Positions 1,570 through 24,057 of a stretch of 64,000 nucleotides of DNA are shown here, piece after piece. Source of the stretch: Taiwanofungus camphoratus. Lineage: Eukaryota; Basidiomycota; Agaricomycetes; Polyporales; Taiwanofungaceae. Position 1 is the stretch's first letter. Each line of letters begins with the position of its first letter. The notes beneath the pieces are model-generated. The model did no database searches. It saw nothing but the letters and a program-made list of their open reading frames with translations, and had not been told where the DNA came from. The translations under genes and the position numbers were made by a program. The DNA lies in NCBI GenBank assembly GCA_003999685.1, contig CP021228.1:1426001-1490000 (forward strand), given 5' to 3'.

Positions 1570-4500
1570 TCATTTTGTCGAGGGGCCAGCGACACAATAC
1601 TTGATATCATGAAATAATCAGTTATTATTTCGAACCACGGTAATTCGCTGACGCACCTCGTATCCGGCTTCCAGATTAGAGCCTAGATCAGAAAGGTCAG
1701 TCAATGATGTGCAGAGAGCTTCAAGCCACCCACAATCAGAATTGAGATCCGTGTTCCATGCAAGGAACTCGGCGGACGTGATATTAAATTTGGTCTCAAT
1801 TTCAGAACAATAATCGCCGGACCTGCAAGGCACACCAATCAGTCAGATGCATGGAGGATAGTAGCTCTGAGAGCATACACTACGGTGTAATACTCTGGGA
1901 GTATTTTCGAGTTAGCAATACCTTTAAGGGTCAGAATGAAAACCTCACCTGTGCATCCGGATCTGTGAAGACCATAATCAGGTTAGTCAATACGTTCTAT
2001 GATCGGAAATCAATAAGACATACATGACTCCTGGGGCAGTCGGGCTTGCCGCAGGACTTGAAGAGGTCGGTGTCGCAGTTGTAGTTGTAGAGAGCGGAGG
2101 ACCGGCTACACAGTACTGGTATCCGAGTTCGAGGTTATCGCCTGATGTACGGCACGAGACCATTAGCGTCAATCAACATCAAGGTACTGAACTGGGGCCC
2201 ACACGATGAGTCAACGCCAGTGTTCCAAGCTAGGAATTGGGCGAGAGTGATGTTGAACTTGGCGTCAACGGATCCGCAATTGTCTCCCGATCTGAATTGG
2301 AAACACAAGGAATAAACGATTTACCCGCGCTGAATGGACGAAACGCCGATGCTTACACAACAGTATAGTATTCTAGGTTGCACAGCATATTTCAGTGGCC
2401 TAACCGGGAATAGTCAGGTGGTCACGTACGTGTGCATCCCGTGGGACTAACCGCCATACGCTCGGGGTGAGGAGCCGCTCGGTAGAATGGATTATATGAC
2501 TCACATAGTACCCGGGGCAGTAGGACTAGCTGTAGGCGTGGAACTGGTGGTAGTTGGTGAGCTTGAAACGGCCGGACCGCTCACACAATATGCGAGTCCA
2601 ACATCGATATTCGTACCTAGTTCAATCTTAGGTCAGGGACAGATGAAGTAAAAGGATCTGGCCCACAATTGGCAAAACTGAAGACATAGAAAGTTAGGTC
2701 TTGATTAGGAAGACTACTCAAAGCACGCACACTTCAGGATTCCATGCAAGAAACTGTGCTAGGGTGATTGAATAGTCTTGTTCAATGACACTGCACGAGT
2801 CTCCTGACTGCACTGTGTAGTATTCTGGAGACGGGTCATGAAAAAGGATGCATTAGACGACATTTCCAACGATGAACGTACGAGTACAGCCCGTCGTATT
2901 TGTCCCGCTTGCCACATTTGTCGGTACGCTATTCCCTGACGTGGTCGTCCCAGTCGTAGTAGCTGTGGAATTAGATGGCCAGGTGTATGTCGTCGTCACG
3001 CTTATCGTTGTAATAATCGCAGGGCCAAGTACACAGTATGACAGCCCAGGAACCAAATTGCTACAGTTGGATGCGATCTGACGTAGTCATGAGATGCGTC
3101 CTACGAGATAGTAGTGGCTGCTGACCTCGGGGTTCCATTCCATGAGCTCGTCCTCCGTGATGTCGTAAACCACCTCGATGGAGAGACAGGAGTCTCCTGC
3201 ATGATTTCTCAGTAATCAAGAAGGCTCAACCAGTTTAATGTCCTTACCTGTCTGAACCTCATAGTCTGTTACCGCCACCATTGTTAATACACGTTAAAGA
3301 TAACAGAGAAAACATGCTTACATGAGAAACAACTGCTGCTGTTGAGCGACCCAGGTGCAACGGTAGGTGTAGGTGTCGGTATGGGACTGCCCGGAGTAGT
3401 AGGCGGCAAGGCGACACTGACACTAGTCAAATTCACTGCGTCTGTCAAATAACCGGTCCCAACAGGGAAGTAACCGGCTGAGCGGATGTGGCAATTTCAA
3501 TATACACGCGTTCTATAAGCGTAACGGGCACCACATACACAAGTATTGAATCATAGCTGCTCCCGTAGAGGTCGGGGCAACAAATTCGGTGGTTGTCGTG
3601 AGATCTATACAACAAGAAGGGTGAAAATGAAACCACGATACCAGAAACCTTGCATGGACTCACTTCCATAGACCGCAACACAATAGGAGAAACCGGCCAG
3701 GAGGTTAGAGCACTTGACTGCTATTTAGCCATATCACATAACCAGGAATGTATGCGTGACTTACATCAGCGTTGACGAGTGGATTGAGCTGTTGAAAATG
3801 AGTCAGATGCGATGCAAGGGGGACCATGGTCATACCTCGTAGAATGTCTCATTCGTCAATTGGAACACCGTTATGATCTAAAGGGAAAGCAATTGAGTCA
3901 GCATAGGTGTCTGACTCCTTTAGAGTAGCAATGGACCTCCGGACAAGTATCTGTAACAATTGTTAGACTCTCAGTGAGACAAAATGTTATGAATCCGATC
4001 AACGTACCACCTGGCACAGCAACATACCACTGACCACATTGCGAACGATCGGCTCCTGGAGCAATGGGAGCAGTCGGTATCCTAGCCATACGATCAGTAT
4101 CCGAGATTAGGGCACTGAGACTGGACTGACGCAATCGCTGTTGGGCTACCTAGATACAAAAATGAGCGCTTCTAGTATACAAGATGAGAAGATAAGACCG
4201 AACCTGTAACGAAAGTCACGGTCGCAGATGGAGTGTATCCACCGCCAGGCGGACTACACGGGACGCGGTCAGATTGCTTTCAAAAGTACACGAGAGACAT
4301 CACTGACCCAACGCAGATACCTTTGCCAACTTCTAAAATGAGATTGTTACAATACGAGTTGATTTGGCTGTATAAATCGTATAAGGCATTATTTTCCAAG
4401 CTGACTTCAACGACATGAGCAACCTACGGATTCCATGACAACAATTGCGACCTTTCCAGAAGATAAGTATCCCCTGCATCTTATGAAAGAAAGACGAACG

Positions 4501-5715
4501 TACCAAGTCACATTGTGGTCTGCCGCGATTTCTACGCATGTATCGTTTGTCTGAACGGTGTACAACGAGCAAGCACCAGAAAGACAAATAGTACTGCCTG
4601 CAGGCGGGAGCATGGTGCAGTTGATGTCGAGGCCATTGATGGATATCAGCTGGTCATATGACAGGGACTTAGCAGCAGCGATGGAATCGCATGTGTCACC
4701 GCTCTGGAGAAAGATATGAAATTCTGTCAATCGGCTTTCAAACCTAAAGCATAAATGCCGAAGGCTTACTTGGACAGTGTATGAACCGAATGTACAATTT
4801 GCTGATGACGCAGGTGGCAGTGTCGGCATCCTATTACGGGGCACGTTAGGTTTGCAGATGTTAGGAGTGGAAAACAATGACTCACGCAGTCACGTTTGAA
4901 GTTGTGCCGTTTGCAGCAAGGGGGTTAGAAGCATTGAATAACAGGGAGGCAGGTATCGTATTGTTGGCTGCGAAATTACAAGTGGATTGTATGCTCTCCC
5001 AATCGGAAACACTAATAGAAGAATTGGTCACTACGATTTAGTTGTTGTGGATTGCAATGAGGCTTCACAATGTCCCATCCCAACCGAACGGGCTGGTCAT
5101 TTGCACATTTAGGCCATCCAGATTGCATGTTGTGCACAATTGCGCGGAGGGAAGTGACGTGATCGACTGATCCGTAGTGGATTCCGATGCCTATGATGAA
5201 GCATTTAGAAAGGCAAGCAGCATAGAAACTTTAAAGAAGATGGGGACCTGTTCTTCAGTAAGGCAGTATTCGGATGCGGAGGTGTCAACAAGGCACGTCT
5301 ATAACTGGGTGTAAGCATCGAAGTGAGGAAAGCGTGTGAGACGACATGCTCTGTTCCATTGATAGGCAAGGTATCTAAAAGGTAACGAAGCGATGTAACT
5401 GGTATCCTGGAGGATGAAGGGCCACCCTCCGCAAAAGCTATCGACAGTTTCTGTAATGTTGATCAAACTGTTGTAACACGCGGATGTACATAATGTTGAG
5501 AGATCTGTCGTGGTCAAGTTTGAAAGGGCCATGAACGAGGACGGGAGCGCATTCAAGATGACGGGTGGGCACTCCACGACCGACGCCAGAGCATCAGCAC
5601 ACTCTGGAGAGGAGGGAAGGGGATAGATGTCCGATGCATTGGAGTAGACACTGAATGAGGATTGAGCAAAAGCAAAGGCAGGAGAGAGCGCGACAACGGC
5701 CGCAAGAATGTGCAT
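1570..5715 (-). CDS. Secreted protein with about seven LysM domains
   Basis: Predicted secreted chitin-binding protein. The start at 5715 gives a signal peptide ([18 protein letters not shown]). An N-terminal cysteine-containing region without LysM follows (exons near 5350-5715, 5248-5298, 5080-5180 and 4890-5020). About seven LysM repeats come next, recognised by a GDxC start, a WNP or WNT centre and a YCV end: about 4570-4740 ([20 protein letters not shown]), 4360-4560, 3700-4060, 2990-3190, 2570-2830, 2090-2290 and 1570-1830. Ser/Thr-rich linkers separate the later ones. The last exon is tiny (1570-1599) and ends YCVAGPSTK-stop. The gene is very intron-rich. The apparent in-frame stop after QLLSWNP (near 4425) falls inside a 61-nt intron (4367/4428 borders). 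The intron at 5299-5349 appears to use a GC donor. Fungal LysM proteins bind chitin oligomers, and multi-LysM genes are known neighbours of killer-toxin-like (subgroup C) chitinase genes, as here. Family is sure; the LysM count and inner borders are approximate. Confidence 0.85.
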
Positions 5716-6570
5716 GGCTCAAGTTCGTGACAGAGAAAACAGCACACGCCCTAGCTTTTTGGATCTCTTTCCAAGCGCTTTTGGGGCGTAGCAGATCTGC
5801 GTACGAACGGGGATAGTACCTGCTGACAGTCTGACGGGCCTGTCATCCTTGTTTCATTGCTGGGCAGCATGACTCGTGAAACACACAAATCTAGAGCGAC
5901 GGAATCTTCCCAGCGGGAAATGATGGTGAGCGGATCCGGAACGGAGCGTCCAAGATTGATCGGATCGATAGACGCCCAAGTCCTGGTGTGCAGCCACGGA
6001 CTTGGTCGTGTTACCACTCTACGCCTGCTTCGTATCCTTACCATCTCGCCTGTACAGGAACCCAGAAAGCTTCATATAATATTTTGGGGCAGTGCTAGCA
6101 CAAGAAACTCCGCAGTTGAATGGGCAAAAGGCATCGCATTGCTCTCCGAGGTCACCGTTGTTCAAGATGGAGTTATTCGTGCCTGGTGATGGCTGGATCA
6201 CAGGTATGCCCTTAGCCTCATTGAATTGTACGTGCGTCTTTAACCAGAGTCCGTCCAGACGGTCCAGATGGAGATTAGGCTCAACAATAGCATCTTGTTG
6301 CATGCGGTGATGTCCTTCTACCCGTCCCAGACCTGTCAAATATGTAGTCCTCTTACATCAGACAAGGTTAGATGAGACGTCAAGTCTACTTTGGGAACAT
6401 CACGAGAGGCACAGCCAGCGTCCTCTGTACCGATTTTCCAGTAACGCTCGAGATCTTGCATTTCAGCCGGTGACTCGTAGACGCTGAGAATTTGCCAAAA
6501 GACGAGGATACTTGATGCTCCCGACTTTGTTTTCCTCTGAATCTGAGCACGCCTCTTTCGAATTGTCGCT
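5716..6570. promoter_or_regulatory. Shared divergent promoter of the LysM and chitinase genes
   Basis: An 855-bp gap between two head-to-head start codons (5715 minus, 6571 plus). No strong TATA box stands out. A diverged copy of this stretch is present near 18956-19472, so it was duplicated together with both gene starts. Joint control of the two genes is inferred from the layout only. Confidence 0.55.
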
Positions 6571-9500
6571 ATGAGGATCCTCATTCGCCTCCTTTGCTAC
6601 CTTGTGCTATCTCTTTTCATCGTTTCTAGTGTTACGGGAAAGGGCAATGCCTCTTCGTCAGAACGGCGAAAGAATGTCCCTCGCTCCCTCAACTTCCATG
6701 AGACAGTCAACGGTCGATCTTCTTCGTATCACGTAACCCCAGCAGTTGCTCGCCATCGCAAGCGTCTCGCGAAAGCCTACCGCGAAAAACGTGAGAGGGT
6801 TGTTCCTGCTCCACCCCCTCCTCCTACGCGTCAGTTCCGCCATTTCGATCCCAAGACGACGTTCTTGCCACAGCAAAAGGCGGTCTATGGTGACTCCCAC
6901 ATCGATGGTCATAGCGGGAATGGGCACCACCATAGGAAGAATCATTACAAGCGCCGTCTTTCGTGGGACTTGGGCGGAGTCAGCTCGAGTTTGACGAGGA
7001 GACAGCAGCAGAACGAAGCATGTGGAAACGCTACGATCACTCCTCCTGGATTCGATGGAACGTGTGCTGCTGATAGACCTTGTCCTAACGGCGCATGCTG
7101 GTAAGAGTGCAGTAAAGTCGAAATTGTATTACGCTGACGTCGATTTTCGATATAACTGTAGCGGAGCATCGAACTTTTGCGGATACGGTGATGAATATTG
7201 CGGTACTGGCTGTCAGTCGAATTGTGATGCGAAGGCGGAATGCGGTCCGAACGCACCGGCAGGCCAAGAGGAATGCCCTTTGAAAGTCTGCTGCAGTAAA
7301 TTTGGCTTTGTGAGTTATTCGAGCCAGATCTTCCATGCGGAATTTGGACTATGCCAACTCAATTTTATGTTCTCAGTGCGGTACGACGGATGATTTCTGT
7401 GGGGATAACTGCGTCGGCGATAACTGTGGGGAACCCACCATTCCGAGCGGTGCAGCCACTTCGGTCACCTCTCGCGTCATCGGATACTATGAGGTGCAGT
7501 TCCATATAGTCCCCTTTTGTCACAATTAACTGACAAGGTTCATGTCTTACAGGGGTGGGCTTCCAGTCGACCATGTGATGCATGGTAGGAACACGTTTGT
7601 CTCCGCTTTCAGGAGTCTTGACTTTCTTCTATAGGTTCCCTCAGAATATCGTAGCCCAAGGATACACGCACCTTTACTATGCTTTTGCTTCTATCGATCC
7701 TGTGAATTCTCAACCTTATGTTCTTCCTGTCTCTGTTCTGAACATGTTCATCTTCAGGATAGCTTCGCAATCACTGCGGCCAGTTCTCAGGATGTTTCGC
7801 AGTACCCGGTGTTCACGAATTTAAAGCAGGCAAACCCGAATTTGAAGACTTACATCTCTGTTGGTAAGCACAGAGCCTGCCTTACCTTGTATGTAAATCG
7901 CAAATCTCACATCAATTTAGGTGGTTGGGCATTCAATGATCCTCCGACGCAATACATCTTCAGTGAACTGGCGGCTGACCAAGGTAATAGGGTTGCGTTT
8001 GCCCAGTCTTTGGTATCGTACGTCAATTGAGCTGTCTACGTTGTTTTGGTCCTCATATCGTCCACAGATTTATGCTACAATATGCGTTCGATGGCGTTGA
8101 TATCGACTGGGAATATCCTGGTTGGTGTTTGTCTTCTTACATTCTGCATACCAGCTCATTGCACCTCCAGGCGCCTGTGACCGCGGCGGAAGTCCGGCTG
8201 ACGTTCAGAATTATCCGTTGCTCCTTTCCACTATTCGATCAGTGTTCGATGCATCCGGCCACTCTTTCGGACTTACCTTCACCGCGCCCAGTTCGTATTG
8301 GTATCTGCAAAACTTTGACCTGCCAAGTCTGCTCGAGTCTGCCGACTGGGTCAACCTAATGACGTACGACTTGCACGGAGGTAAGCCTTGATCTTTAGTG
8401 GATGGTGCAATGTGCTGAAACATTCCACCAGTATGGGACTCGAAGGACGCGTACATAGGTCCCATTGTCCAGGCTCACACTAACCTGACGGAGATCAAGG
8501 AGAGCGTGCAGCTATTCCTGAGAGTCGACGTGCCACTTGATCGAGTCGCTCTTGGACTAGGATTCTATGGCCGGTCGTTCCAGTTGAGCGACCCGACATG
8601 CACGACACCTGGATGCCCATTCAGTGGTCCTGCTCCAGCTGGGCGTGAGTCACGTTGTTGTATCGTTTGTACAATGAGCTTGACCTCCCGTCCTAGCGTG
8701 CACTGACTCGCCTGGGATTTTGTCGTGTAAGATGAGACAATTGCATATTGTCGACCGTGCTAATTACTTATGGCTGCGGCAGTCTCTGAGATTCAAAGTG
8801 TACTGAGTTCCTCCAACGCAACGCCGGTGCTCGATGTTGCGGCGGCAGTGAAGTATCTGGTTTATGATAACGTGAGTCAGCGATACAGTTTTGCTGCGGG
8901 ATCTGATCGGTCTATCTTCAGGATGATTGGATCAGTTATGATGATAATGACACGTTTGCAACTAAAGTATCATTTGCGAAAAGCGCTGGATTCGGTGCGT
9001 TCGACTACCATACTCATTTTGTTATGTTAACATGCTCGTTTTGGCAGGTGGCCTCATGGTTTGGGCTGCAGATCTGGACACATTTACGTATGTATATATT
9101 TGTTTTCTCTTGTAAGGCTTACTCACTTTCGTGACTACAGCGGAACGGTTGGTGGTCAACTGCCATGTTCTTTGCTAATAGTTCAAACATTTTTGATAGG
9201 CTTTAGATGCAGTCTTGGGAGCCAACACAAGTATGAATACTGGTGCTGACTACTTTTATATTCTGATTCCATTGCTGTCTAGCTGTATCAATCCCAAAAG
9301 CAACTGATGTAAATTCACAAGATGGGAAGCAGTGTACACAGATGGCCTGCGGGCAGTCATGTCCTTCTGGCTATATCCAGATGACAGGTTTGTACTTGCC
9401 CTTTTCCGCTTTATGGTCCATGTGGTCTGATGATCAAGGACAAGATACTACCGATGGCGAGCTGGGTATGTTACTTTCACTTTGTGTTTGTCAAATATTT

Positions 9501-12500
9501 ATTTACACACTGGTTATTGGTTTCAGCCAACCCTAAGAGTGGTGAGTCACATTGTCATATGTTACTCTCGAAACTTCATATCTGTCACAGGCTGCAGTCA
9601 TGGAGAGGGGAGACCTGTATGCTGTCCTGTTGAGTAAGGTTCAATTCCATTCTTTGAAGGTACTGTCTCAAATTCGAATAGTCAAATACCACAAGGCTGT
9701 CAATGGCGAGGATCTGGTCAGTTCGTCGAGCGTTTCGTTTACGCATTTTTTAAGCTTGGTATTTCACAGCAAATGTTTGCAACGGTGTCTGTAAAGGTCA
9801 GAGTACTGTTACCTTTTGACAAAGCAAGGCTTATACTCTAGACTGCAGCTGGAGAAATTACCCTTGCTGTTGATTCTTGTATGTTGAATTCATTCTGGGC
9901 ATTTGTTTCTTTGTTAATTATTCCATCAAAGGGGGAACTGGAAAAAAATGCACTTCTGGGCACAAAGCATTTTGCTGTCAATCTGGACTGACCACTGAAC
10001 AGATTGATTCGGCCACAGACTGTGCTTGGTGTGTATCTGGGTTATCATCTATGTTGTTTTCTGGCTAATATTATGTACAGGTGTGAGTAGCAAATACTTG
10101 TTTATCTTCGAATGATATGGCTAAGCTCGTCTTTGTTGTGGGCTATGTCTCAGATGGTATATATGGCTTGTTATAGACATGTGTCGCATACTCATAGAAT
10201 TTAACATATAGGTCATCAATCCAAAAAGTCTGTCTATCAATGTTGTTGTGTGAATCTTGGACATTCCTGATGAATCATGGCCATACAGTTGCAATGACAA
10301 TGTGAGGGTTTCAAATGTCTAGATTGGGACAGTGTCGCTGAAAGTATGTAAAGGTCTGTCCAGCGGGAACCTTTACCAGATCAACAGACTGTAAGTCAGT
10401 CATAATTGTTTCAATGAACCAATGATATAACGCCCTGATCAGACTATGGAGATACTGGTCTTGATCATGCGTGCTTCATGCAAGAAAAGTCATATTGCTG
10501 GTAACTATCATGGTTTTCTTATTCCTGATTCTAACTGATATGATCATCTGGTAGTTATCCACCTGGAAACACTACTGTCAATTCCCCGTTCAATGTGGTA
10601 TGTATCTGCACTATTTGACAGTATGTTCATGATTGCAACCTAGTGTTTGTTCAGGATGACTTGTTTTCAGATCCCTTTTCCAATGGTGATCTTACCTGGG
10701 ACCTTGAGGATGATCCCATTGATGAAGATGCGCCTGATGGTGGGCAGGGTGCAGACAACAATGGATTTGGTATGATTGCCATGGATGTATGTGTCTATTA
10801 CATTGTCAAGATATAATTTCTGATCACTGGTGGTCAGGGTCCCTCAAGCATGCTGACAACTATGGATGGATCCTCTGATTGGGTTATCACTGGCTGCATT
10901 GACACCCAAGACTTGCAGAATGTCACTGCATTCTGTAGTAAGGAAGAGAGTGATCCTGACTCTGGCTGCGGTGCTGTGTTTGAGGGTGATGCCAAAAATA
11001 CGTATGTTTTCTTATTATATGCAGTCTGCAATGACCAATTTTGAATTTGTGTAGGATTGTGAAGATGCCAAGCACATGTGGTGGCAGTCCCTATGCTCGA
11101 GTTGCATTGCTTGAGATCAACAATCACATTGCATTACCATCATCATTGGCTGCTCTGAAGCCAGAGAGCAATCCTGTCTATGAGTTTCACTTTGACTACA
11201 ATTTTCACTTGCTGTAAGCTCTCATTTTGTCACTGAAGGATTCTTTGCTGATATAAAAATCACAGATCAGAGACCAGAGATCCTTCTACAGATGGTGAAG
11301 TTCTGGTTAGAGTTGATGCCACCAATATGCCGTATGTCATGTTCTTATAGTTCTTGTACTACTCTAGACTGAAACGTGATGTTTTTTGAGATACTATTGG
11401 GCTGAGATAGACACCGCAGGTATGATCAGTACCATTTGTACTTGTGTCTAGTTCTGATCTCTCTTCAGACCCTAATTCTGCCGTCAGACGTGGTGTCATT
11501 GAGGAGCGCTGGTTTGGTGGTTTCACAGATTGGCTGTCAAGACTCAACAAGGTGGAATCAGAGAGCAGTGCTGATCTTCTGATATCCCGGTCATTCAATA
11601 AAGTGCTGTACTCTGCTAGTCAGACTTGTGGCAGTGCAGATGGCACCACCAGTTTCACAGCTTCCGTAGATCTCTCAGTCTTTGGAAATGCTAATTTGCA
11701 TGTTCGCTATGGTATGTGTATAATCATCTTGTCAACTTGTATCAGTCATAGCACTGAAGTTGTCTGCAGGGTTTTATATGCAAGGCACCATTTTCCCCAC
11801 AAATATCAATGATGCATATGTGTATGCATCCTCAGATGCATCTGCTAGTCTTGGATTTGAGTTGTCAGGGAAGGCCAAGGCCACCTACTCCAGTGGAAGA
11901 GTGCCAATTATCCCTCAGATAGCTTGGCCTGGTGTAAGTATCATCACATGATGCTGTGCTTGAGTTTAGACACTGAATTATTCCTGCTAGCTTTCATACT
12001 ATGGCATAGGTATGAAGTCATGAACCATTTTGTTTGATCGGTTTGCTGACCTCAACCCTCAGTGACTGTTGGCCCCACATTCAACATTTGTAAGTGTTTT
12101 TTAGGCCATGATCTCTGAAATGATCCTGACCTTCAATTATTTAGTTGGAGTACTTGATGGGTCTTTGACTGCATCAGGCACATTTTCTGTCACAAATTCA
12201 TACACATTCCCTGGAGGGTGAGCCTCAGTAGTTTTTCATGCTATGACAGTTCGGTTTCATGCAATGCAGGCGTGTTGCATGGGGTATTATTGGTGATCCT
12301 AATGATTCCGATGAAGGCATAAGTGGCAATGTACAGCCAACACCATTTGGTAGGCCATCCATCTATTGCATTCCAGATATTTACAAATAGCTACCTGATT
12401 TAGGTTATGAGATCACACCGCAGGCAGACATTCAACTGGGAGGATCACTCAGGTTTGTGTCTCATTATTTGGCTATTTAGATTGTTCACTTTTTGGGCAT

Positions 12501-15114
12501 CTGCAGCATTCATGTGATTCCTGAAGCTGAAGTCACAATCAATGTGTTCCCCGGAACTCCTGCCAGCCTTGGTGCTCTTGGTTTGTACAAGCTATCATGA
12601 AAGTTTCAACACACTGACTTTTTTGTCTAGCCTATATTGCAGCAGATGGTTCCATGAATGTTCAATTGAGCGCTGATCTTTCAAGTGCAGATGTGTATGT
12701 TGGTGGAAATCTGTTATTCAGTGGTGTATGTGGTTTTGCATTCCTTGAAGTCATTGCGTTACATTTTATATTTCAATGTGTTCCAGGGAGTGGACTCTAT
12801 TTCAGGCTCAACCCGAAGCCCGCTGCTGGGACCTTACACTTTCTATCAGAATGATTGGACCATCTATAAGTGAGTCGTCCAATTTAGTTTTGGTGATTGG
12901 CCTGATGCGGATTCACACCACCTAGTTATACCCTTCCCTTTGGAAGCTCTACAGCGACAAGGCGTGAATTAGACGCAAATTTCACCGATCCCACATTCGA
13001 TGATTTTGTCGCGTTCCCAGTGCATGAATTGTACTCCGATAGCCATGGCATCTCCAATAACTACCGACGCTCATCTCCGCTAGGAAGCCTCTCTTGCCCA
13101 ACCCCTGTCAACCAGACGATTTCCCTTCCATCAGAGCTAGCTGATGATGACGACAGTGATCCGGATGACGTTCAAGATGAATACACCCGTCGTTCCATTG
13201 AGATTCTGAGTCCTGGTAGGTGGTGACTTGGCATGCTTTCCCCATGAGTGATTGACATTCCTCCGTCAATAGGCGATGTACTTGTTTCGACAGGATGCTC
13301 TGGGTAAGCATATTACTTGACACAGTGAACCCGTTTCTTATGTTATCTTGTATCTAGGTTGACAATCACGCCTCCTGGATACTCGGGTACCGGGGATTTA
13401 GGATATTATGACCTCGCTGTCAGTACGGAGTACGTCTGCCTTTACAAGGAAGTCATGTAGTCTCTGATGAGTTCAAAGTCCCACGTCAATTATGGTCTTG
13501 AATTACGGTGCGGGTAATCCGCAGGTAACGAGGTTCTCTCACGAGATGACAATATCTCAATGCATCCTATATTTCTATAGTGGTGGGCAGCGTACAATCC
13601 GAACAACGGAAACCCACCGAACGGTAGAGCTACAGGCTACGGCCGGGAGCATGTTTTTGAAGCACAGGTATGTCATAATGCGGTTGGTTTTCGTCACCGT
13701 CCTAATGTTCCGGAACAAGCTGCTTACTGTGTTCATGACGGTAATGAAGTTGTCTGAAATGCATTGTCATACTGAAGGCATTGACTGTGATTTGAATTTA
13801 GGACATTATATCGCAATATATACCCCCGAATTTCACCCTTTGTACCTGGCTTCGAGCTTTCGTTTTCAGCAATTGGTATGCCTTCAACGGTGGTCTCAGC
13901 TTTGCTCAGACTTTGGCATCGAGACTGCCTCACAACCCTGGTCCAGCAGACAGCATGCCTTGTACGTAACTGCTCTACCTGTAGTTACTCATCCAGCCCT
14001 GACGCTTTTATCAGTCCTCAACCAAATTGCGAATCAGGCAAAGTAAGTGCTCTAAGTACATCATCTCTCATTGAACCCTGCTATAACCCCCTAATTGTAG
14101 AGCGGCAGTAAGCAGTCCATGTTTTTCCAAAATTGATTAATTTAGCTCACTCACTCGACCTGCCAGTTCATCGTGCAGAACAAGCGATTATTCCGCAAGG
14201 TGCGTGGTATCGACTTGTGTTGTCCCCTTGGATGTTCATAGCAACTATTAGCAAGCCACGCTTCAGAAGAGGCTCCCTGACACCGTAGTTTACCTCATGC
14301 GTCAAGTAAAACTCCTAACTTCAATTTTGTTCACGTGCTCACCCTCATGTTAGGCCGGGATGTCCATCAATTATATGAATGACAACACGTAAGGCAGTAT
14401 TGTAATTGTGTCTTCTGGGGATCTTACACCTATTCCAGAGTGCGAGGGGCTTTCATAGCCGTAGCAAATCAGGTGATCAACCCTTCTTCTCGTCAACGAT
14501 CTATGATTCCAACCTGTGTCTCCAGGTAACGCAAGACTGGGTAAACTTCTTCCAGCAGTGAGTGAAGCTTGCTTGCTCGTACACCATGTTTACCATAATT
14601 GAAACTGGCACAGGTACAATGCTGCTGCGGCACAGGCCAACATGGGAAATTATCAAGTTAATAACATCGCACAAATTCATCGGTATGTTTCCTTAGTCTG
14701 TGCCTGTCGATCGCTAACATCCGTGTCCTGTACAGCAACTGGATTAATGTAAGTACCCCTTAATGCAGTACCATCTTGGTGCTGACAGTAGTATACCGAT
14801 TGCCAGGCCAATCTCGGTGAGTTAACCTGAACTGTGCTGTCGGAAACCATTCCTGGCTTACCTAGTAACCATCAGTCGCATATGGAAATCAAGCTCAAAC
14901 ATTCCTGACCACGGCTCAGGATGTTCTCACAAATATGCTTAACAATGGACAGCTTACTATTGGTGTTCCGCTACCCGTACGTCAGACCTTCCTGCGTTCT
15001 ATGCAAAGTGAATGTGCTGTTAATCGAGGTGTTGGCTTCTAGGGAAGTCCAAATACGGCGACCATCAATACTGCGAACTTATTCAGTTACGGAAACATCA
15101 ATTGGCAATATTAG
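6571..15114 (+). CDS. Large secreted GH18 chitinase (subgroup C, killer-toxin-like) with hevein-type chitin-binding domain
   Basis: Hydrolyses chitin; predicted secreted. The start at 6571 gives a signal peptide (MRILIRLLCYLVLSLFIVSS), then a basic His/Arg/Pro-rich stretch, then a cysteine-rich hevein-like chitin-binding domain (about 7160-7440; CGYGDEYCGTGC, CPLKVCCSKFGF, DFCGDNC). The GH18 barrel runs from about 7470 (RVIGYYE) to 9060 (MVWAADLDTF). Its catalytic motif FDGVDIDWEYPG at 8087-8122 keeps all three Asp and the Glu; LMTYDLHG and GLGFYGRSF are also present. Beyond it are cysteine-rich stretches (about 9340-10070) and a long C-terminal region of unknown fold, ending INWQY-stop at 15112-15114. 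Introns are numerous and some exons are under 30 nt, so I do not give a full exon list. Fungal subgroup C chitinases resemble the alpha/beta subunit of the Kluyveromyces killer toxin and often sit beside LysM genes. Identity is firm; the 3' half of the model is approximate. Confidence 0.85.
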
Positions 15115-16224
15115 GCTGTTCATTAGTATTACTGCCATTCAGAGACTGCTCTCACTTACCCCGAATTTCGTCTTCCACGATCTCGTATGTCATTGCGAAT
15201 CATCTGTCCATCTTCTCCACTCTTTTAGGGTCTGCCAAGTCTCGTAACGGTATTGATTGGGAAATTGATGGGGTGACTATGTATTTAACTCTGGATTGGA
15301 AATCGAAAGTCAGTTCCATCACACAACGTCTGAATTTCGTTCGTAGACGTAAAAACCTTGCAAGCATCTGCCGTGAGACAGAATTCATTGCGAACGACTG
15401 GAAGAAGCTGTGCAACTTCCGTATATGCATATAAATTGGCTTTCGTCTTCTTCAACAGGTCGAAATCATCATCAATGGCGATCTAGGCCATGACCAAGTA
15501 CATAGTACCTTGTGATGGATTTGAACTCGAAACAGCGAACGATCGGTCTAATGGGCGCGCGGCTGTCACGATCGATAAGGCTGTCCTTGAGATAAGAACA
15601 TCACAGCCGTGGCCCGTCGCTGGCATACCATAATCATTTCGCTCATTACAATATGCCTGCTACTAAGCACGCCGAGAACATCATACAAGCGGCCTCAGGC
15701 TTGCAAGCGATGACTGATAAGGGACGAAAGTACGTTTCACAAGTGCAATGCGAGCACATATAGCGGAGTTTATATTCAACTTGCGCCCAAGAAATTCGGT
15801 GCTTCGGGTCTGGATGTGGGTGAGATGGCCGGTAGAGTGAGGACCATCAGTTGGACCTGGAAGTCTATAGAGCGCATTCATACCCAATTGGAACTCGAGC
15901 AAAAAAGGAAAATAAAAAATAAAAAATAGGCAAATAACGATCTCTGATTGGCGTCGGGCCTGGGACTCGAACTTGGCTGCAAGGACGCTCTAATACCACA
16001 TCCCTGCGATCTGATGGCGTTTTTCACTTTCGCGGTTTTATAACATTGCCCAAGTCTTCGTTGAATCGGCTTTACGATCACGTGCCTCCTCAAGTGGTCG
16101 AATCGTTCGAACATGGCTCGGATCAGCCTCTAAACAGCCATTTGACATCTCCTAGTATGCAGGTATGCGGGTGTTTTCCGAATTGTCCGTAGCTGAGATC
16201 CAGTGCCAGGCGGAAGAGAATCGA
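15115..16224. other. Intergenic, no gene recognised
   Basis: About 1.1 kb between the chitinase stop and elongin C. It holds scattered short frames and two TTCGA/TTCAAA B-box-like spots (near 15515-15530 and 15960-15975, minus) that do not fold into tRNAs. A run of AAAAAATAAAAAATAAAA lies near 15900-15930. Confidence 0.5.
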
Positions 16225-16773
16225 ATGCCAAGTGATTCTGATTGGGTCAGGCTTGTTAGTACGGACGGATATAGCTTCCTCGTCCGACGCAAGATGGCCT
16301 TGGGCAGTGGCACCCTCAAGAACATGCTGAGTGCTGAAAGTAAGTTCGGAGATGTATGTACCACTGCTCTATCTCGCTGAGCCCCATTTCGATCGTCAGG
16401 CAATTTTGCTGAGGCGGTGTCAAACACCTGTCCAATCAATGAGCGGCACGCCCTTTTTTCCTTCCTCCATCGAGACTGTGGCTCCGATTGACGGGACGGT
16501 GTTCTCCTAAACAGGGGTGCTGTGGTGGAGAGGCTTTGCGAGTACCTGACATACAAGGCACTCTACGCGGATGCGCCGCCCAAGGAGATCCCCGACTTTA
16601 CAGAACGCCTTATGCCTGAGATAGCGCTGGAATTGTCGGTATCCTGATCTCATACTCACGTTGTGCGTCTGATATACTTTGCTTGCAGGCTTATGGCGGC
16701 AGACTATTACGAAGGTGCATGGTTTCCGCGATTCGGCACTTACAAGTTGCTCAACAGTTTTCGTCTAGCGTGA
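16225..16773 (+). CDS. ELC1: Elongin C (Skp1/BTB-fold adaptor)
   Basis: Small BTB/POZ-fold protein that pairs with elongin A and acts as adaptor in cullin ubiquitin ligases and RNA polymerase II turnover. Exon 1 (16225-16339) begins MPSDSDWVRLVSTDGYSFLV and ends at MLSAES, matching the family's VKLISSDGHEFIVKREHAL...MLS. Exon 2 is 16400-16445 (NFAEAVSNTCPINE). Exon 3 is 16515-16634 (VVERLCEYLTYKALYADAPP). Exon 4, from 16689, begins LLMAADYYEG. Most relatives stop right after this LLMAA-DYL/C segment, while this frame continues 18 residues to a stop at 16771, so the true end may differ by a last short intron. The intron after NE fits only with a GC donor (16446). An earlier in-frame ATG at 16165 is possible, but 16225 matches family length. 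Confidence 0.88.
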
Positions 16774-17289
16774 CCTATTGTTTCGTACACGGCATGAGCG
16801 TGCTGTGGACCATGGAGTCGTGTCTTTCATCAACCAGAATGAATGTTTCTGGTGCGGGCATATTAGCACTCGCAGGTGTAGTAGCAATGGTCTATTTCCG
16901 GGCTATCACAGGTAGGAGCGGCGAGGAGATACTCGTTTTGAGGTCGTGTCGACGTCGGTAAATTCATAGACGCTCCACTGCTACCAGATCGATGTACTTC
17001 GCTTATAGTGCTCGAATAGTTTATATCTCCATAATTTCGAATCATACGAAAGTCTCAGTTGTTTCATACGCAGCTTGCCGCTCAGTGTTACAAGCCTGCA
17101 ATAAGGCGATACTTTCTAACCTTTGACTCTGTGATCTTCATGATTCAATATCAATGCACATTCAGCGCAGACCGGGTAAAATGTATATTCCTGGAATCAA
17201 CCCAACACAGGGAATCGATGCTGTATTACGTTTTCGATTGACAAGGATTTAATACACGGTATGCTGACCATAATAGCAATATCTAGTGT
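16774..17289. other. Intergenic, no gene recognised
   Basis: Short frames only and no domain. Lies between elongin C and the decayed copy that starts at about 17290. Confidence 0.45.
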
Positions 17290-18110
17290 AAAGCCGTTGG
17301 GTGAAGACGACGTCTCTAGGAACAGTCAGCACACCGCTTCTGCCATGCATGGCACTTGTCGAAGAAAACCTCGAGCGTGGTCTCCGAGTCCATCTCGTCG
17401 CTCACGAGGATTTCACGCGGTCGACAGTGGCCCGAGCCTACGCCATACTTCTGGCTTCAGGCCCGTCAAAACGACGTCGGAGTCCATGTCGCCTGACAGA
17501 GCTGGGCTGAGGCGATGCCGGCGAGCAGAGCGTCATAAACTGTGGTGGCCTGGATTATCAGGTCGTACTGGACCTGTGGTGGGCGGAAAGAGGTTCGAGG
17601 TGCTTCATGCAGTTGTTCCCGTCGCCGTTGTCGTAGACCTCCCGTATCGGCCCCGTCGTGTCCGTCATCGCCCTTATCGTTACCCATTGTGCCCTGCTGT
17701 CACTCGAATCCTATACCTTCCTTAGTGTTTTGTTGTCCTGCTTGAAGACAAACCGCTTTCGCACGCTCCCTGATCGTTTCTTCACGGCGCCCACTTTGCA
17801 GGCACTGCGGACGTTCGTCCGCCAACAGGTTGCCGCTGCAGAATCTTGGGGTCCAAATCTACTCGCGGGCACAGGAAGCCATGACGCGCGCGGGCGGTCC
17901 GAGTGCGTGCGGTACTCAAGTCGTCCGAGTCCCGATCGAACAAGAAAAATGCACGATTTGCATTTTGGTGACCAGGAAAGCTCAAGTACGCCGAGTAACC
18001 CATGAACATCCCCAGAGCATCGGTATGCAATCACATCTGGAATTGTTGACCGTCATATATTTTGCCGAGGAGACCGAGGAAGTGACGCGTTCTGTGTCAA
18101 GTAGTAGTTT
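17290..18110 (-). pseudogene. Decayed copy of the unknown gene at 20276-22573
   Basis: The plus-strand sequence lines up, in the same orientation and order, with 20380-22000. Stretch 17320-17420 matches 20390-20480 (shared ggaacag..agcacaccg and cgagcg..ctc.gagtccat). Stretch 17430-17560 matches 20690-20810 (ctacgccat, ggcttcaggcc, gagcgtcat, gacctgg or gcctgg). Stretch 17600-17650 matches 20890-20950, and 18060-18110 matches 21880-21920. Several hundred bases present in the intact gene are missing, and no long frame survives. It is therefore a shrunken, non-functional relic of the host gene. Borders are approximate, and the part between 17700 and 18050 aligns only patchily. Confidence 0.75.
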
Positions 18111-18430
18111 CCAATTCGACTGTTGGGCCAGCAAGGCAGTGCCTGAATATCATCAAAATCGATCCTTCTCCGAGCCACGATAGTCTGCTAACGCGGCTTG
18201 CTATTCAGGGCCTGGAAGTAGAGGAGAACTTCGAGTCACGGTCGGAATTGAGAATCACCTCCATGAGGGGACCTCGGTGAATGTAGCTTCAATTCAGTAA
18301 TAGCAGTCGCTGGAGCCACAAGGCTCCTCGATCGGTCAAGCACATGAACGAGATGACGCCTTTGAAAAGGCGCGCTTGTAATATTCCGAAGTTGCAAATC
18401 AAGTTAGAAGGACAATACGGAGATCTCACC
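18111..18430. other. Spacer between decayed copies
   Basis: No gene recognised. It may hold further unrecognisable remains of the duplicated block. Confidence 0.35.
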
Positions 18431-18955
18431 TGCGCGCCAGGATTTTCGAAAGCCGCGGATAGACTAGTGTGTATGATTCAGGATGATTCGACACTCATAT
18501 CAAGTACACATGATACCATGAGCAATCGGAGTGGTAGTTGTGGGAAGCGGAGGACTGGCCACAACTGGTATGCTCTGTCATTAGGCCTCGCGGAATTGCC
18601 ATCCGATGTAACGGCGTAGAACCAGAGCGTCAATCAATATAAAGGTACTGAATTACGACCCACATGCTGAATCGACGCCATTGTTCCGAGTCAGGGTCTG
18701 GTCAAGGTGATGTCGAATTCGGTGTCAGGGTTCCCGAAGCGATCCGAGGATCTGGAATAAAACATGAAGGAAGCGACAACCTCTATTCCATAGGACAAAC
18801 GGTCGCGATGGACGCCAGTGCGACGGCAATTTGGAGAGAGAGGTAAGGAGTACGTTCACGATGCGCTGGAACAGATGCTCAGGCAAGGATTGAGCGAAAA
18901 GAAGCTTATCGGAGAGCCTGCTCAGTCGGCGATGACGGCCAGGAGCAGTTGCATG
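18431..18955 (-). pseudogene. Decayed copy of the LysM gene
   Basis: Stretch 18530-18760 aligns with 2085-2310 inside the LysM gene (shared gagcgtcaatcaa or tagcgtcaatcaa, aaggtactgaa, gatgtcgaa or gatgttgaa, ggatctg or gatctg). Stretch 18880-18955 aligns with the signal-peptide start at 5650-5715; a start codon at 18955 on the minus strand still opens MQLLLAVIAD. The roughly 3.3 kb that separates these two parts in the intact gene is absent. The gene is broken and much shortened. It lies head-to-head with the decayed chitinase copy, as in the intact pair. Confidence 0.75.
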
Positions 18956-19472
18956 GATCGGGGTGCGAATAACTCTTTAGAGTGATTCAAGAAGCTGCAG
19001 AGCTGTGTCGTGAAAGCAATAGAGCCCGCCGATATCAGCTCAAATTTCCTGGGTGGACTTTGCTGGCGCCCTGCTAGTACAAGAGGAAAGAGGCGCACCG
19101 ACGGTACCAACGCGGCGGGCGCTGACGGAAGCTTTTTGAGAGATGACGATGTGGATCCGAAGCGGAGCGCCCGTGCTCGATGCTTGGGCGCTTGAACGTT
19201 TGGTAGTCCGATCACATGTGGCAAGGGTAATCTCATGTACGCCTCCCGCGCGTCATACAGGGCTGATCTACGTTCGGGACGCCTTGCAGCACAAAGTGAT
19301 GCACTTGCAACCCATTCAGCGTCAAATACATGTTTTGAATCATCACCTGAACCGTGGGCGGCATATGACCTCCATCAGGAAACCGTCACCGTCTGAACAC
19401 ACCTGAGGTCTAATCTCATATGTCTCACTGGATTTGGAGTCCCTCTTGAATCTAAGCTTTCGACTACTCGCT
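18956..19472. other. Decayed copy of the divergent promoter
   Basis: Stretch 19140-19260 aligns with 5920-6040 of the intact LysM-chitinase promoter (shared ggatccg, cggagcg, gctcgat or tcgatag, gtgttac or gtcatac patches). Similarity is low but in the right order and spacing between the two decayed gene starts. Confidence 0.55.
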
Positions 19473-19850
19473 ATGAAACATGTCTATTATGGTCTTGTAC
19501 CGTCTCTCTTCGTCGTTTATGGTGTGGTGGAAAAGGACAATGCCTCTTCGTCAGTGCGGCAAAAGAATGTCCCTCGCTTCCTGAATTTCCACGAAACAGT
19601 CAACGGTCGGTCATCTTCATACCACATTACCCCCGCAGTTGCTGCCATCGCAAGCGTCTCGCGAAAGCCTACCGCAAAAAACGCGAGAGAGTTGTTCCTG
19701 CCCCCAATCAGCTTGTATGGCGCACCTGCCCTCCATCCCTCTCATGTTAAACCCTCCCTATTCAAGACTCCTCGAACGGTGGTGCCAAAATTGGAGAAAC
19801 TACGAGATAGACTTGGCAGAACTTGTTGTTTAGACCACGAATATTACCGG
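19473..19850 (+). pseudogene. Decayed copy of the chitinase 5' end
   Basis: The frame from 19473 translates to a signal-peptide-like start, then NASSSVRQKNVPRFLNF and HETVNGRSSSYHITPAVA. This matches the intact chitinase (NASSSERRKNVPRSLNF, HETVNGRSSSYHVTPAVA) almost residue for residue. After that the frames no longer agree with the intact gene, and nothing of the chitin-binding or GH18 domains remains before 20.2 kb. It is a truncated relic of a host gene. Confidence 0.85.
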
Positions 19851-19871
19851 TAACACAGGGTACTGAGAGGC

Positions 19872-19970
19872 ATCATCATGAAAAATCAGGGTAGCTCCCG
19901 ACGCTACGGCAACCACAACCAGATCTGTAGCACATCCAGCTACATAGTTACCTGCATTTTTCGTGATGAT
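19872..19970. mobile_element. MITE-like element, copy 2
   Basis: Inverted ends ATCATCATGAAAAATCAGG and (reverse complement of the right end) ATCATCACGAAAAATGCAGG. The interior is close to copy 1 at 722-846 (gggtagctcc, gctacggcaac, tctgtagca, ccagctacat). It is 99 bp, non-coding, and sits just after the decayed chitinase copy. Its position in the block differs from copy 1, so it probably inserted on its own rather than being duplicated along with the genes. Confidence 0.75.
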
Positions 19971-20275
19971 ACCGTCGAAGGGCGTGCACTGGGGTATCAA
20001 GCATTTTGCCAGTTACAGCGAATTGAAGATATCAGCAATGTTAAGTTCTCGCTTGAGTAATTCTCAGTGTTCGAAAACCTCAGCTGTATCAGTATTCAAG
20101 GAGACCCCTTCAGAGCTGTTTCTGCACGTTCCGATCCTTTTGACTCATTGCTCCCTCCGAGTCAAACCATACTGATATACATTCAGCCCCGATAAGGTAC
20201 AACCTGATGGATGGAAAGGGAACCAGTGCAGTGAGTCGGTGTTCGATGTAGTACATTCGTAGTCCGCAGGTACCC
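19971..20275. other. Intergenic
   Basis: No gene recognised. It contains the expected 3' flank of the unknown gene that ends at 20276. Confidence 0.4.
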
Positions 20276-22573
20276 TCAAAACTCGTTGAATGCTGTGGTA
20301 ACCCTGACGGCAATAAGACCCCCATCCACATCTCTCCGCCCAACGACTTCGTATCCGCCATCATCCACAGCAGAGATGACACCCCCAGGAACAGCAAGCA
20401 CACCGTTCTCCCCCTCACCATCCATGAGAACTTTGTCAATGAGAACTTCGAGCGCAGACTCTGAGTCCATGTCGCCACTTACGAGAACGTCGCTTTCAAG
20501 CGCAGAGCGCATGATTGCGGCTGATGTGCCGGAGTCGACGGAGAAACTGCCTACAGGTTCCCATGCGTCCTCGTCCTCGTCCTCATCCCCGCTATCGTCA
20601 GTTGGGACACTTACTAAATTGTCATAGTCGACGTGGCCCGCTTGTACCCAGAGAAGGTTGATATCGCGGCGATCGTCTACGACGCGAACCACGCTACGCC
20701 ATATACCTGGCTTCAGGCCTGTGAGGACAACGTCGAAGTCCAGGTCGCTTTTGGAGAGTATAGCATCGCCCACGAGTAGAGCGTCATTAGGCGTAGCGAC
20801 CTGGTGAAGTCATCAGCTCATACAGACACATTGGTGGGAATATTGGCTTACCTCGAAGATGCGGTACGCGTTGGACGCGTTCAAGTTAGCGAGGATCTTA
20901 TTTAGGCGCTTCATGTAGCTGTCTCCATCGCCATCGCCCGTGAGCTCGCCATCCGCATTGGCCTCATGATCTCGGCTATGGCCCGCGCCAACATCTCCCT
21001 CCAATGGCACCTTACTGTCACCCGAATTCTCAACCGTCTGTTCAGGACCGTTCTTCTCGAAAACCACACCCCTCGCCTCCTCCTCCCTGATGCGCCTGTC
21101 GTCTGCGGTGCTCACGACGCCAATCCAGTAGGCACAGCGGAGATCGACTGTGAACGGGTCCGCGCTGGCGTACCTCGGGTTCCGGATCTGCGCGCGCGGT
21201 GCACTCACGTCGATCACCAAATCCGAGAGCGGGTGGCCCATGGGGTCCGTGCAGTACAGCCACTGCGTCGCAGGGTCGTACCCCCACGCGGCCGTGATCA
21301 ATTTCGCGAGCCCGAGCGCGGAGGACTGGGGCTTCGTCTTTCTGGCCTTCTTTTTGGCGGGGCCACTGGTCTCGGGTTCGGGCTCCGGGAGCGGCTCGAG
21401 CGAGTACTGGATTACGCGACCAAGCAGCGTGCGCGCTTGGGCCTCTGACAATGGCAGCGCCAGCTTGTCGGATGAGAGCACGTGGTCCGCCTCGCTGTTG
21501 TGTGCGGCGAAGGTCATGTTATTGGAAGACCATGTGCGGACGGGGATGAAGATGTGCGAGGCTACCAATGGCGGGACGGTTGTAGTTGGGAGGATGTTCC
21601 GGCCATTGCCAGGGTAGTGTAAAAGCGGTACTTTCTTGTAAGTGGTCGGTGTCGAGCCAGCGTTTGCGGTGGGGTCCGTAGGTAGCGTAGGGTGCTCATA
21701 CGACGGCGGTGCAACGGGGGAAAGCCAAGTTGAGGGGACAGGCGGAAACCACGCTGGAAGAACTCTGTCCCAAGGCACGATGGAATAAATACTGAACGTA
21801 TTGACAACCTCGAGGTTGTTGTCGTCGTTGCGAACGTACTGAATGACATTGGGCTGACCAGGGGATGTGCCTATGCGGGCGAGGACAGAGCGTACAGAAT
21901 ACGCGTCTGTGTCGTGGATGTTTATGAGCTCAGGGTCCGCAGGAGCACCCTCTTTCGGGAGCACGACATCCAAGTTGAGCGCGGGCAGAAAAGGGTGTCT
22001 GTGCTTCTTGTTGGCGCGCACCCCGAATCGCACAAACGCGTCGATGAAGAGCTCGTCAAGTCCCACATCAATCTCTTCCAACTGCCAAACGTCTTCTGCG
22101 CCAAACAATTTATGCTTGGCAGTGACATCTTGGAAGACGAGGACAGTTCTTTCCGACGTGGGAGGCGCAGATTCAGTCCACCAACGCTCCTCAACTTCTT
22201 CCGGTGAAAGCATCAAGTCCTCGTTAAATTTGGTGTGAATTACCTGAACGAGGTCACGCAGAGAGGAGTTGTTGGGGAAGGTGACCATTGTAGACGTGAT
22301 GACCGACAGTAAGTCGACCCTCTACATAGTATTATTCCCTGAGTGCGTGGACCAAAAACAGTGTGTGTGTGCTCCACCTTGGACAAGGCCCAAGACCACT
22401 TGACCTCGTCTCGGACACATTGCAGCAGCCGCATTACCTCCTACGCTCCTCAAACTCCATGAGATGATGTATGAGTATAGGAAGTACGAAGAGATCACCT
22501 CGACGTTTTTCTCAGACTTCGCCGCCACGATCGCATCATGGAGCTCGTGCGCTTTTGCGAGTCCAATAGTCAT
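20276..22573 (-). CDS. Protein of unknown function, about 690 aa, three exons
   Basis: I do not recognise the family. My model has exon 1 at 22499-22573, exon 2 at 20852-22321 and exon 3 at 20276-20800. Exon 1 (MTIGLAKAHELHDAIVAAKS, ending NVE) joins in phase to exon 2 (RVDLLSVITSTMVTFPNNSS) over a 177-nt intron. A simpler start would be the ATG at 22288. The exon 2/3 intron (20801-20851) has GTAAG and CAG ends and joins RIFE to VATPNDALLVGDAIL. Visible features are a basic KKKARK cluster that could be a nuclear signal, an acidic stretch (DSGDEDEDEDAWEP) in exon 3, and a GHPLSDLVIDVS segment. No signal peptide or membrane span is seen. A decayed tandem copy lies at 17290-18110. The intact long frame beside a ruined copy argues for selection on this one. 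Confidence 0.75.
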
Positions 22574-23741
22574 GCCCGGCTATGAATCCGGATGAGATTG
22601 AACTTGATGGTAGCTGGTAAAGCTCCTCGTCCCTCTCTCGATCAACCCATCAACAGAGCAGCGCTTGTTGAAGCGCCCGCATCTTGATATAGGCACGTCT
22701 CGAGCCAATACGGTACTATGTCGAGGCAGTGCCCTCAACGTCTAGTCTATGAGTCAATAGGGGACTATCAAGGCCTGTGCAGTTTGTGTTGTGTGCTGAT
22801 GAAATCTTTCAGGGTCGACCGGTCAACATGGGAGAACGCAAACTCGGGCTGAAAGTCCTCCAGTCCTCCTTCCGAGTGTCAAGGCTCCTGCGTTGTATCA
22901 AGCAAGTCTCGTGCCCGCCGATGGGAATCTGACTCCGGCTGAAGCGTCGTGCTATGTATGCAGCACGTATACGCTGTAGTATACAGTAGTCATCACAAGT
23001 AGCGCAAGACATCAGACAGGAGGGAGACATGAGAAGCTGCATCTTTCTCAGCTGCGAGAATTATGTATGTATGTATGTCGTTCAAGACAGTTCTCTATTG
23101 AAGACTGACAGAACGCAATACCGTATACAGTTGCTTCCCACAACTGCCAGTACTTGAAAAGCAACTGCATTGTCACAATGTCGGGAGAGCCTTTGAATTA
23201 CCTAATGGGGATTGACGCTATCGCTTTGTGACAGAACCGGATAGCCTCAGGGCACCCGACCACGACATACTACAAGTCTTTTCGTATACTTTTTTGTGTA
23301 ACATCTTGGCCCATCCTTAGGACGTTCTGGTGCCTGCGTATCATTCCGAACCTACTTGGATCTTGTATTTCCCCAAATGATAGCCGTAACCGGATCATGA
23401 CGTGCCTTCACTTGACGGCAATGTCGCTGAGCACCAAAGGAATACTCACAGGTAGTGCAATCGCCTTAAGTATACTTACGGATGCTGGTTCTCCCACACC
23501 ATCCGCCTGTGGTGCCTGTAATGATCCTGGCAGTTGACAATATGTGCGCTTATTATGCCCGAGTTCGACTTATAGTTCAGCCACTTGACATCGACGTGAT
23601 TTGATGTTCGGGTCCGTAGTTCCAAGGTCTCTTCTGGTACAGACCGGTCAGTGACACTTTGTGAACATCATCCCTTTGTATAAATGACAGCTTCATTAAA
23701 ATCGCGGTAACGACTTTCTCAGGACATTATCCGCTCTAACC
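22574..23741. other. Intergenic, no gene recognised
   Basis: About 1.2 kb between two divergent gene starts. There is a short ATGT repeat near 23061-23078. A TATAAAT at about 23678 probably belongs to the small secreted gene that starts at 23742. I see nothing else. Confidence 0.5.
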
Positions 23742-24057
23742 ATGCTCATGTATAAGTGTGTCGCCCTGGCTGCACTCACGACAGGCATGGCCTTCGCGCA
23801 GATTACGGTGCGCTTGGTCTATGTCTCCATTATGAGTCGGACTAACGGAATACGATACGGCCCAGGAAACTATGACTGTCACGCAAACGGGGACCATGTA
23901 TGCCCCTAGTACCACCTATCCGTTCACTAGTACCGTGACGGTCACACTGACCAGGACGCTTCGGTCGAGTAGCAGCGGTGCGCGCTCTCTTCCTACAGAT
24001 TGTGTCTGCTCGATGTCTTCGTATGTGTGTTTTGACTCACGCCCGGTGTGTTGCTGA
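23742..24057 (+). CDS. Small secreted cysteine-containing protein (about 85 aa)
   Basis: Two exons: 23742-23807 (MLMYKCVALAALTTGMAFAQ then IT) and 23866-24057. Exon 1 encodes a signal peptide. The intron (23808-23865) has a GTGCGC donor, a CTAAC branch site and a CCCAG acceptor, and joins in phase. The mature part is Thr/Ser-rich (TVTQTGTMYAPSTT) and ends in a cysteine cluster (CVCSMSSYVCFDSRPVCC). A TATAAAT lies about 65 bp upstream. No family is recognised; small secreted Ser/Thr- and Cys-containing proteins are common in fungi and include surface proteins and effectors. A possible second intron (GTATGT donor at 24021, TAG acceptor at 24089) would end the protein at about 74 aa and remove the last cysteines. 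Confidence 0.6.

What the first reader, a model, noticed from the sequence alone, without database searches (positions are those of the whole stretch)
1570..22573. Tandem duplication of a LysM-chitinase-unknown-gene block with reciprocal loss
Order along the window: intact LysM, intact chitinase, elongin C, decayed unknown gene (17290-18110), decayed LysM (18431-18955), decayed promoter, decayed chitinase start (19473-19850), intact unknown gene (20276-22573). All copies keep orientation and order. The simplest reading is one tandem duplication of [LysM-chitinase ... unknown gene], after which the left unit kept LysM and chitinase and the right unit kept the unknown gene. Elongin C would be lost from, or inserted into, one unit. 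The alignments were made by eye.
Basis: partly seen in the sequence, partly recalled or inferred. Interest (0 to 1): 0.75.

Follow-up and report, generated by a model that had tools for sequence, protein, structure and literature searches.

The report
Tandem gene-block duplication, staggered decay
A block of neighbouring genes in a wood-rotting mushroom was copied once in tandem, and the spare copies have since rotted away at different times; this is ordinary genome evolution, but unusually easy to read here.

Summary
In Taiwanofungus camphoratus (or a very close relative) three relics between 17305 and 19704 match intact genes of the same locus, in order and orientation, above shuffled and real-sequence controls. 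Corrected limits: unknown-gene relic 17305-17915, LysM relic 18092-18959, chitinase relic 19431-19704. Genome searches with the relics return only themselves and window partners. One direct tandem duplication of LysM, chitinase, probably elongin C, and the 3' part of the unknown gene explains this; neutral-like divergence is alike in the three pairs (about 32%, p 0.37). 'Reciprocal loss' needs revising: the left unknown-gene copy ends inside the gene 176 bp before LysM homology begins and shows no constraint, so it was probably truncated at birth; the right chitinase copy shows past purifying selection and probably died later, in a deletion that may also have taken elongin C. LysM-chitinase neighbours are known from Trichoderma; locus tags show the pair in other Agaricomycetes, and Phlebia brevispora has a second chitinase beside its pair. 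Ordinary in kind.

The parts
1570..5715 (-). Intact LysM gene (left unit)
   Evidence: T. camphoratus P0007 (AcV7_007610) maps exon by exon from 5100 down to 1573; seven LysM stretches in P0007; start at 5715 from the rough gene model
6571..15042 (+). Chitinase gene (left unit): two chitin-binding type 1 (CBM18) stretches, GH18, long C-terminal part; 3' end approximate
   Evidence: T. camphoratus P0036 maps at 6571-13960, F. radiculosa P0037 matches on to 14383; end from the rough model; GH18 E 1e-69 in P0036
16165..16635 (+). Elongin C gene (exons within these limits; full gene model not made)
   Evidence: 16516-16635 matches solved elongin C chains, E 0.002-0.012 in 20 of 22 hits; 16165-16338 Skp1_POZ E 0.003, below the curated cut-off; first exon found once in the genome
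17113..17232 (-). 3' flank of the unknown-gene relic, pairs with 20129-20257
   Evidence: 1 and 2 of 200 shuffles as good; 0 of 1000 shuffles, but 14 of 988 random real pairs
17305..17915 (-). Relic of the unknown gene (left unit): C-terminal part only
17916..18091 (.). Junction of the two units: no recognisable match to the unknown gene or to the LysM flank; 17890-18130 finds only itself in the genome
18092..18959 (-). Relic of the LysM gene (right unit); 3264 bp of the intact gene's middle are absent between 18772 and 18806
19124..19181 (.). Remnant of the shared LysM-chitinase promoter, pairs with 5898-5960
19431..19704 (+). Relic of the chitinase gene (right unit): upstream bases and start of exon 1 with a frameshift; the rest of the gene not found
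19874..19969 (.). MITE-like element inside the deletion scar of the right unit
20129..20257 (-). 3' flank of the intact unknown gene, pairs with 17113-17232
20276..22573 (-). Intact unknown gene (right unit and beyond); P0001 = AcV5_003081, 710 aa; no Pfam family over its cut-off

Best explanation
A single direct tandem duplication copied about 16.4 kb (present left unit). Its left end lay close behind the LysM stop codon (near 1550), its right end inside the unknown gene (near 21257). The outer genes therefore stayed whole (LysM on the left, unknown gene on the right). The inner left copy of the unknown gene was born as a 3' fragment without promoter and drifted from the start. The right LysM-chitinase pair was born with both gene starts and the LysM end; its chitinase was kept by selection for a good part of the time since, then lost through a frameshift and a large deletion (equivalent to about 6813-17113, elongin C inside), and its LysM gene lost 3.26 kb of its middle. 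Shown: the homologies, their order, the divergence patterns. Inferred: one event, the breakpoints, the order of losses, and that elongin C was in the unit.
For: Collinear relics above controls. Relics find only themselves and window partners in the genome (insensitive: one search missed even the intact LysM gene). Unknown relic shares 128 sites with the local gene only, 47 with the C3 paralog only (p 7e-10). Third-position plus non-coding differences: chitinase 31/117, LysM 142/426, unknown 69/219, p 0.37. Unknown relic has 120 changes of its own against 47 in the intact copy, 46/40/28 at codon positions 1/2/3: no sign of constraint. Chitinase relic differs at 16/156 first+second but 22/76 third positions (p 6e-4), fewer than the unknown relic's own first+second changes (86/377, p 7e-4); behind the frameshift 1/20, 0/21, 3/20. 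Relic chitinase piece 40/56 identical to the own chitinase, 22/55 to Fibroporia radiculosa, own to Fibroporia 25/54: duplication after that split.
Against: Breakpoints are not sharp: 176 bp match nothing, and most of the promoter is unalignable too, so the left end could lie further left. Truncation at birth cannot be told for certain from a full copy that soon lost its 5' part. The flank match that puts elongin C in the unit is weak (14 of 988 random real pairs score as high). Tests of the chitinase's late death are not all significant: 16/156 against half the third-position rate p 0.14 two-sided at 0.145, 0.03 one-sided at 0.16; position pattern behind the frameshift p 0.10; with Fibroporia as outgroup the relic has 4 own amino acid changes against 1, with Phlebia 2 against 0 (4 v 1 p 0.38), the opposite direction. 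The intact unknown gene shows little codon-position bias itself (12/16/16). Local alignment favours matching bases.
Confidence: 0.65

Rival explanations
1. One reading: tandem duplication of complete LysM, chitinase and unknown genes, then reciprocal loss, all three extra copies decaying from full-length genes.
For: Same homologies; a later deletion of about 1.3 kb could have removed the front of the left unknown gene.
Against: Needs an extra deletion ending within about 180 bp of the LysM end; the unknown relic shows no phase of constraint.
Confidence: 0.22
2. The relic block (unknown-LysM-chitinase) is one piece copied in from an older arrangement with the unknown gene left of LysM, or from elsewhere, not one half of a tandem pair.
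For: The three relics lie next to each other in that order.
Against: No unknown-gene match (blastn, tblastn) and no LysM match (blastn only) in the 20 kb left of the window; no other source found in the genome; the intact unknown gene sits where the right unit predicts it.
Confidence: 0.06
3. Separate duplications of the three genes at different times.
For: Overall identity differs: 82.8% chitinase, 68.6-78.6% the others.
Against: The difference lies at first and second codon positions; neutral-like sites agree (p 0.37), and order and orientation are kept.
Confidence: 0.05
4. Compatible with the duplication, about the relic only: the chitinase relic is still a live short secreted-protein gene (open frame 19434-19853).
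For: Open frame of 139 codons; low first and second position divergence.
Against: Behind the frameshift the few changes fit the old frame (p 0.10); no homology to the rest of the chitinase was found after 19704. No expression data.
Confidence: 0.07

Closest known systems
Tal6-tac6 pair of Trichoderma atroviride (LysM protein gene next to a subgroup C chitinase gene; PMC4392113, passages seen)
   Same: A gene for a protein with seven LysM domains beside a gene for a large GH18 chitinase with chitin-binding domains.
   Different: Basidiomycete; no LysM hit in the chitinase; a decayed second pair beside it. Orientation of the Trichoderma pair was not in the passages seen.
LysM-chitinase neighbours in other Agaricomycetes: Fibroporia radiculosa FIBRA_02618/02619, Ganoderma sinense GSI_05258/05257, G. 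adspersum V8D89_004813/004812, Phlebia brevispora NM688_g426/g427 (and g429)
   Same: Consecutive locus tags for LysM and chitinase; in P. brevispora a second chitinase two tags on, 53/57 identical to the first in the stretch compared.
   Different: Their DNA, orientation and any relics could not be examined.
Tandem duplication with a breakpoint inside a gene (general mechanism, recalled)
   Same: A gene cut by the end of the unit leaves one whole and one truncated copy.
   Different: Here a cut gene and a whole gene of one event show different fates side by side.

Membership tests
Direct tandem duplication | Two copies adjacent, same order and orientation | tested here: met
Direct tandem duplication | Pairs of one age | tested here: met
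   neutral-like divergence not different, p 0.37
Direct tandem duplication | Single-copy ancestor with the predicted order in a relative | not testable with these tools
   no DNA of fungal relatives held; only locus tags for LysM-chitinase neighbours
Unprocessed (DNA-level) pseudogene | Intron and promoter sequence copied along | tested here: met
   LysM relic aligns through non-coding stretches (112 mismatches of 337 sites); promoter remnant
Repeat-induced point mutation (RIP) | C-to-T excess in the duplicate | tested here: not met
   no excess of C/G to T/A changes in the relics, at CpG or elsewhere
Subgroup C fungal chitinase (as defined in PMC4392113) | Large GH18 protein with CBM18 and CBM50 (LysM) modules | tested here: not met
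   GH18 and CBM18 found in P0036 and P0037, LysM not listed at E up to 5; may work like one with its LysM neighbour
Tal6-tac6-type neighbour pair | Multi-LysM gene beside a large chitinase gene | tested here: met
   divergent, starts at 5715 (-) and 6571 (+)
Elongin C | Sequence match to elongin C / Skp1 fold | tested here: met
   20 of 22 chains at E up to 1 are elongin C, E 0.002-0.012; Skp1_POZ E 0.003 for the first exon, below cut-off; the genome search with PF03931 did not list this place

The most novel reading that the evidence does not exclude
The divergent LysM-chitinase pair is a cassette that Agaricomycetes duplicate in tandem again and again and then lose (here and, independently, the chitinase in Phlebia brevispora), as in a birth-and-death arms race with other fungi; the late death of the second chitinase here would be one turn of that cycle.
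Probability: 0.2. Interest if true: 0.45.

Novelty: new member of a known kind. Interest (0 to 1): 0.25.

Why it matters
It is a small natural experiment: one event, one gene probably truncated at birth that drifted, one whole gene that was kept for a time and then lost. The truncated copy is a built-in neutral yardstick for the life span of the second chitinase, and the case bears on why LysM-chitinase pairs change in number among mushroom-forming fungi. It does not change what is known about duplication.

Tried and rejected
Repeat-induced mutation as cause of decay: no C-to-T excess. Repeat-mediated unequal crossing over: 1-1570 against 22574-26000 shows nothing (25 of 60 shuffles as good), and the MITE-like copies at 722-850 and 19874-19969 belong to a dispersed family (54 matches listed, 40 of them near full length; 40 of 83 candidates scored). 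Junction as a transposon: 17890-18130 finds only itself. A second LysM-chitinase pair in the genome as source: of 5 LysM matches 2 are this gene, and the other 3 lie 63 kb or more from any listed GH18 match. Segmental copy on C3: in 40 kb only the unknown gene matches beyond 26 bp (apart from the 44 bp relic match to that same gene). Structure of the unknown protein: mean pLDDT 43.6, not used. A recalled resemblance of its C-terminus to DUF4241 was not borne out (no Pfam hit at E 10). Rfam and tRNA scans of the window: nothing. First count of neutral-like sites (31/117, 186/567, 72/225, p 0.41) had taken 141 sites of the LysM first exon as non-coding; recounted. Papers: PMC4392113 passages; PMC8865532 passages (LysM, CBM50 and pseudogene do not occur in its main text). 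Searches were seen as listings and starts of abstracts; this duplication was not seen in them.

Full report
Source. The window lies in a genome of 33,194,378 bases in 15 contigs at C9:1426001-1490000. The searched part of the unknown gene is 99% identical to Taiwanofungus camphoratus AcV5_003081, and the LysM and chitinase genes map to the T. camphoratus proteins P0007 and P0036; the species is a polypore.

Observation. Gapped local alignments score 146 and 88 (unknown gene), 152 and 65 (LysM ends) and 310 (chitinase) against maxima of 38, 47 and 39 in 200 shuffles each; in six tests 0 of 150 real-sequence controls each reached the observed score. Limits after closer alignment: unknown relic 17305-17915 (pairs with 20374-21257, 20486-20659 missing), LysM relic from 18125, or 18092 with looser scoring, to 18959 (pairs with 1553/1583-2312 and 5577-5720), promoter remnant 19124-19181, chitinase relic 19431-19704.

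One event. The order is that of a direct tandem pair: LysM, chitinase, elongin C, unknown(relic), then LysM(relic), chitinase(relic), unknown. In 597 columns the unknown relic agrees with the local gene at 382, with the C3 paralog at 301 (local-C3 374); 128 sites are shared with local only, 47 with C3 only (p 7e-10). Genome searches with the relics return only themselves and window partners; the LysM relic returns only itself, so these searches are insensitive. Third-position plus non-coding differences are 31/117 (chitinase), 142/426 (LysM) and 69/219 (unknown), p 0.37; pooled 242/762, Jukes-Cantor 0.41. The chitinase relic piece is 40/56 identical to the own chitinase and 22/55 to Fibroporia, own to Fibroporia 25/54, so the duplication is younger than that split.

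Two fates. The unknown relic has 120 changes of its own against 47 in the intact gene (p 2e-8), 46/40/28 on the three codon positions, as in DNA without function. It stops within the gene, 176 bp before LysM homology begins, and nothing of the remaining 1.3 kb is seen: what a duplication ending inside the gene would leave. The chitinase relic differs at 7/78, 9/78 and 22/76 of positions 1, 2 and 3 (p 6e-4); the unknown pair at 59/187, 49/191 and 59/190. Chitinase first and second position differences of both branches together (16/156) are fewer than those of the unknown relic alone (86/377, p 7e-4). Behind the frameshift 3 of 4 changes are at old third positions (p 0.10). I read this as selection for a good part of the time since duplication. 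Against it: measured against half its own third-position rate, 16/156 is not clearly low (p 0.14 two-sided at 0.145; 0.03 one-sided at 0.16), and with Fibroporia or Phlebia as outgroup the relic has 4 against 1, and 2 against 0, amino acid changes of its own, too few to decide (p 0.38 for the first). LysM is intermediate (47/185 first+second, 30/89 third, p 0.15).

Elongin C. The 40-residue piece 16516-16635 matches elongin C chains (20 of 22 listed, E 0.002-0.012). The 3' flank of the unknown gene matches in both units as far left as 17113/20129 with looser scoring (for 17122/20139 0 of 1000 shuffles but 14 of 988 random real pairs). If real, the right unit lost what corresponds to 6813-17113, elongin C included; the scar holds a MITE-like element. 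The first exon of elongin C was found once in the genome.

Known context. Trichoderma has multi-LysM genes beside subgroup C chitinases (PMC4392113, passages). Of 29 LysM proteins listed, 4 have locus tags consecutive with a chitinase listed (FIBRA, GSI, NM688, V8D89); 4 more stand on a contig of the same length as a listed chitinase of the same species (T. camphoratus, Flammula alnicola, Trametes cingulata, Peniophora sp. CBMAI 1063); 5 are from species whose listed chitinases stand on contigs of other lengths (Mycena filopes, M. sanguinolenta, M. rebaudengoi, Mycena sp. CBHHK59/15, Exidia glandulosa); for 16 no chitinase of that source is listed. Only 120 of 866 chitinase hits were listed. 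Phlebia brevispora has a second chitinase two tags on, 53/57 identical in the stretch compared.

Odds. The tandem duplication itself I hold at about 0.9.

Verdict.

Noticed in passing
45560-46258: Near-palindrome of about 700 bp (76% self-complementary) that belongs to a dispersed repeat family (35 matches listed for its left half).
   Followed up: partly
722-850, 19874-19969: MITE-like element of about 125 bp with inverted ends; 54 matches listed, 40 near full length at 91-100% identity, a lower bound; another copy in L028 about 1177-1285.
   Followed up: partly
48001-52000 and 59001-64000: GC of 0.62-0.71 per kb against 0.42-0.50 in the stretch between, with overlapping open frames on both strands.
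   Followed up: no
20276-22573: Unknown protein of 710 aa with 6 hits, itself included, among the candidates scored: T. camphoratus (2), Postia placenta, Amylostereum chailletii, 2 unnamed; no Pfam family over cut-off; paralog (58-76% identical by segment) at C3:942986-945256.
   Followed up: partly
9087-10553: The public chitinase model P0036 skips this part although stretches matching other species' chitinases lie in it: the public model is probably incomplete.
   Followed up: no
15500-16050: Two stretches between chitinase and elongin C look to the eye like tRNA 3' halves; ARAGORN finds no tRNA.
   Followed up: no
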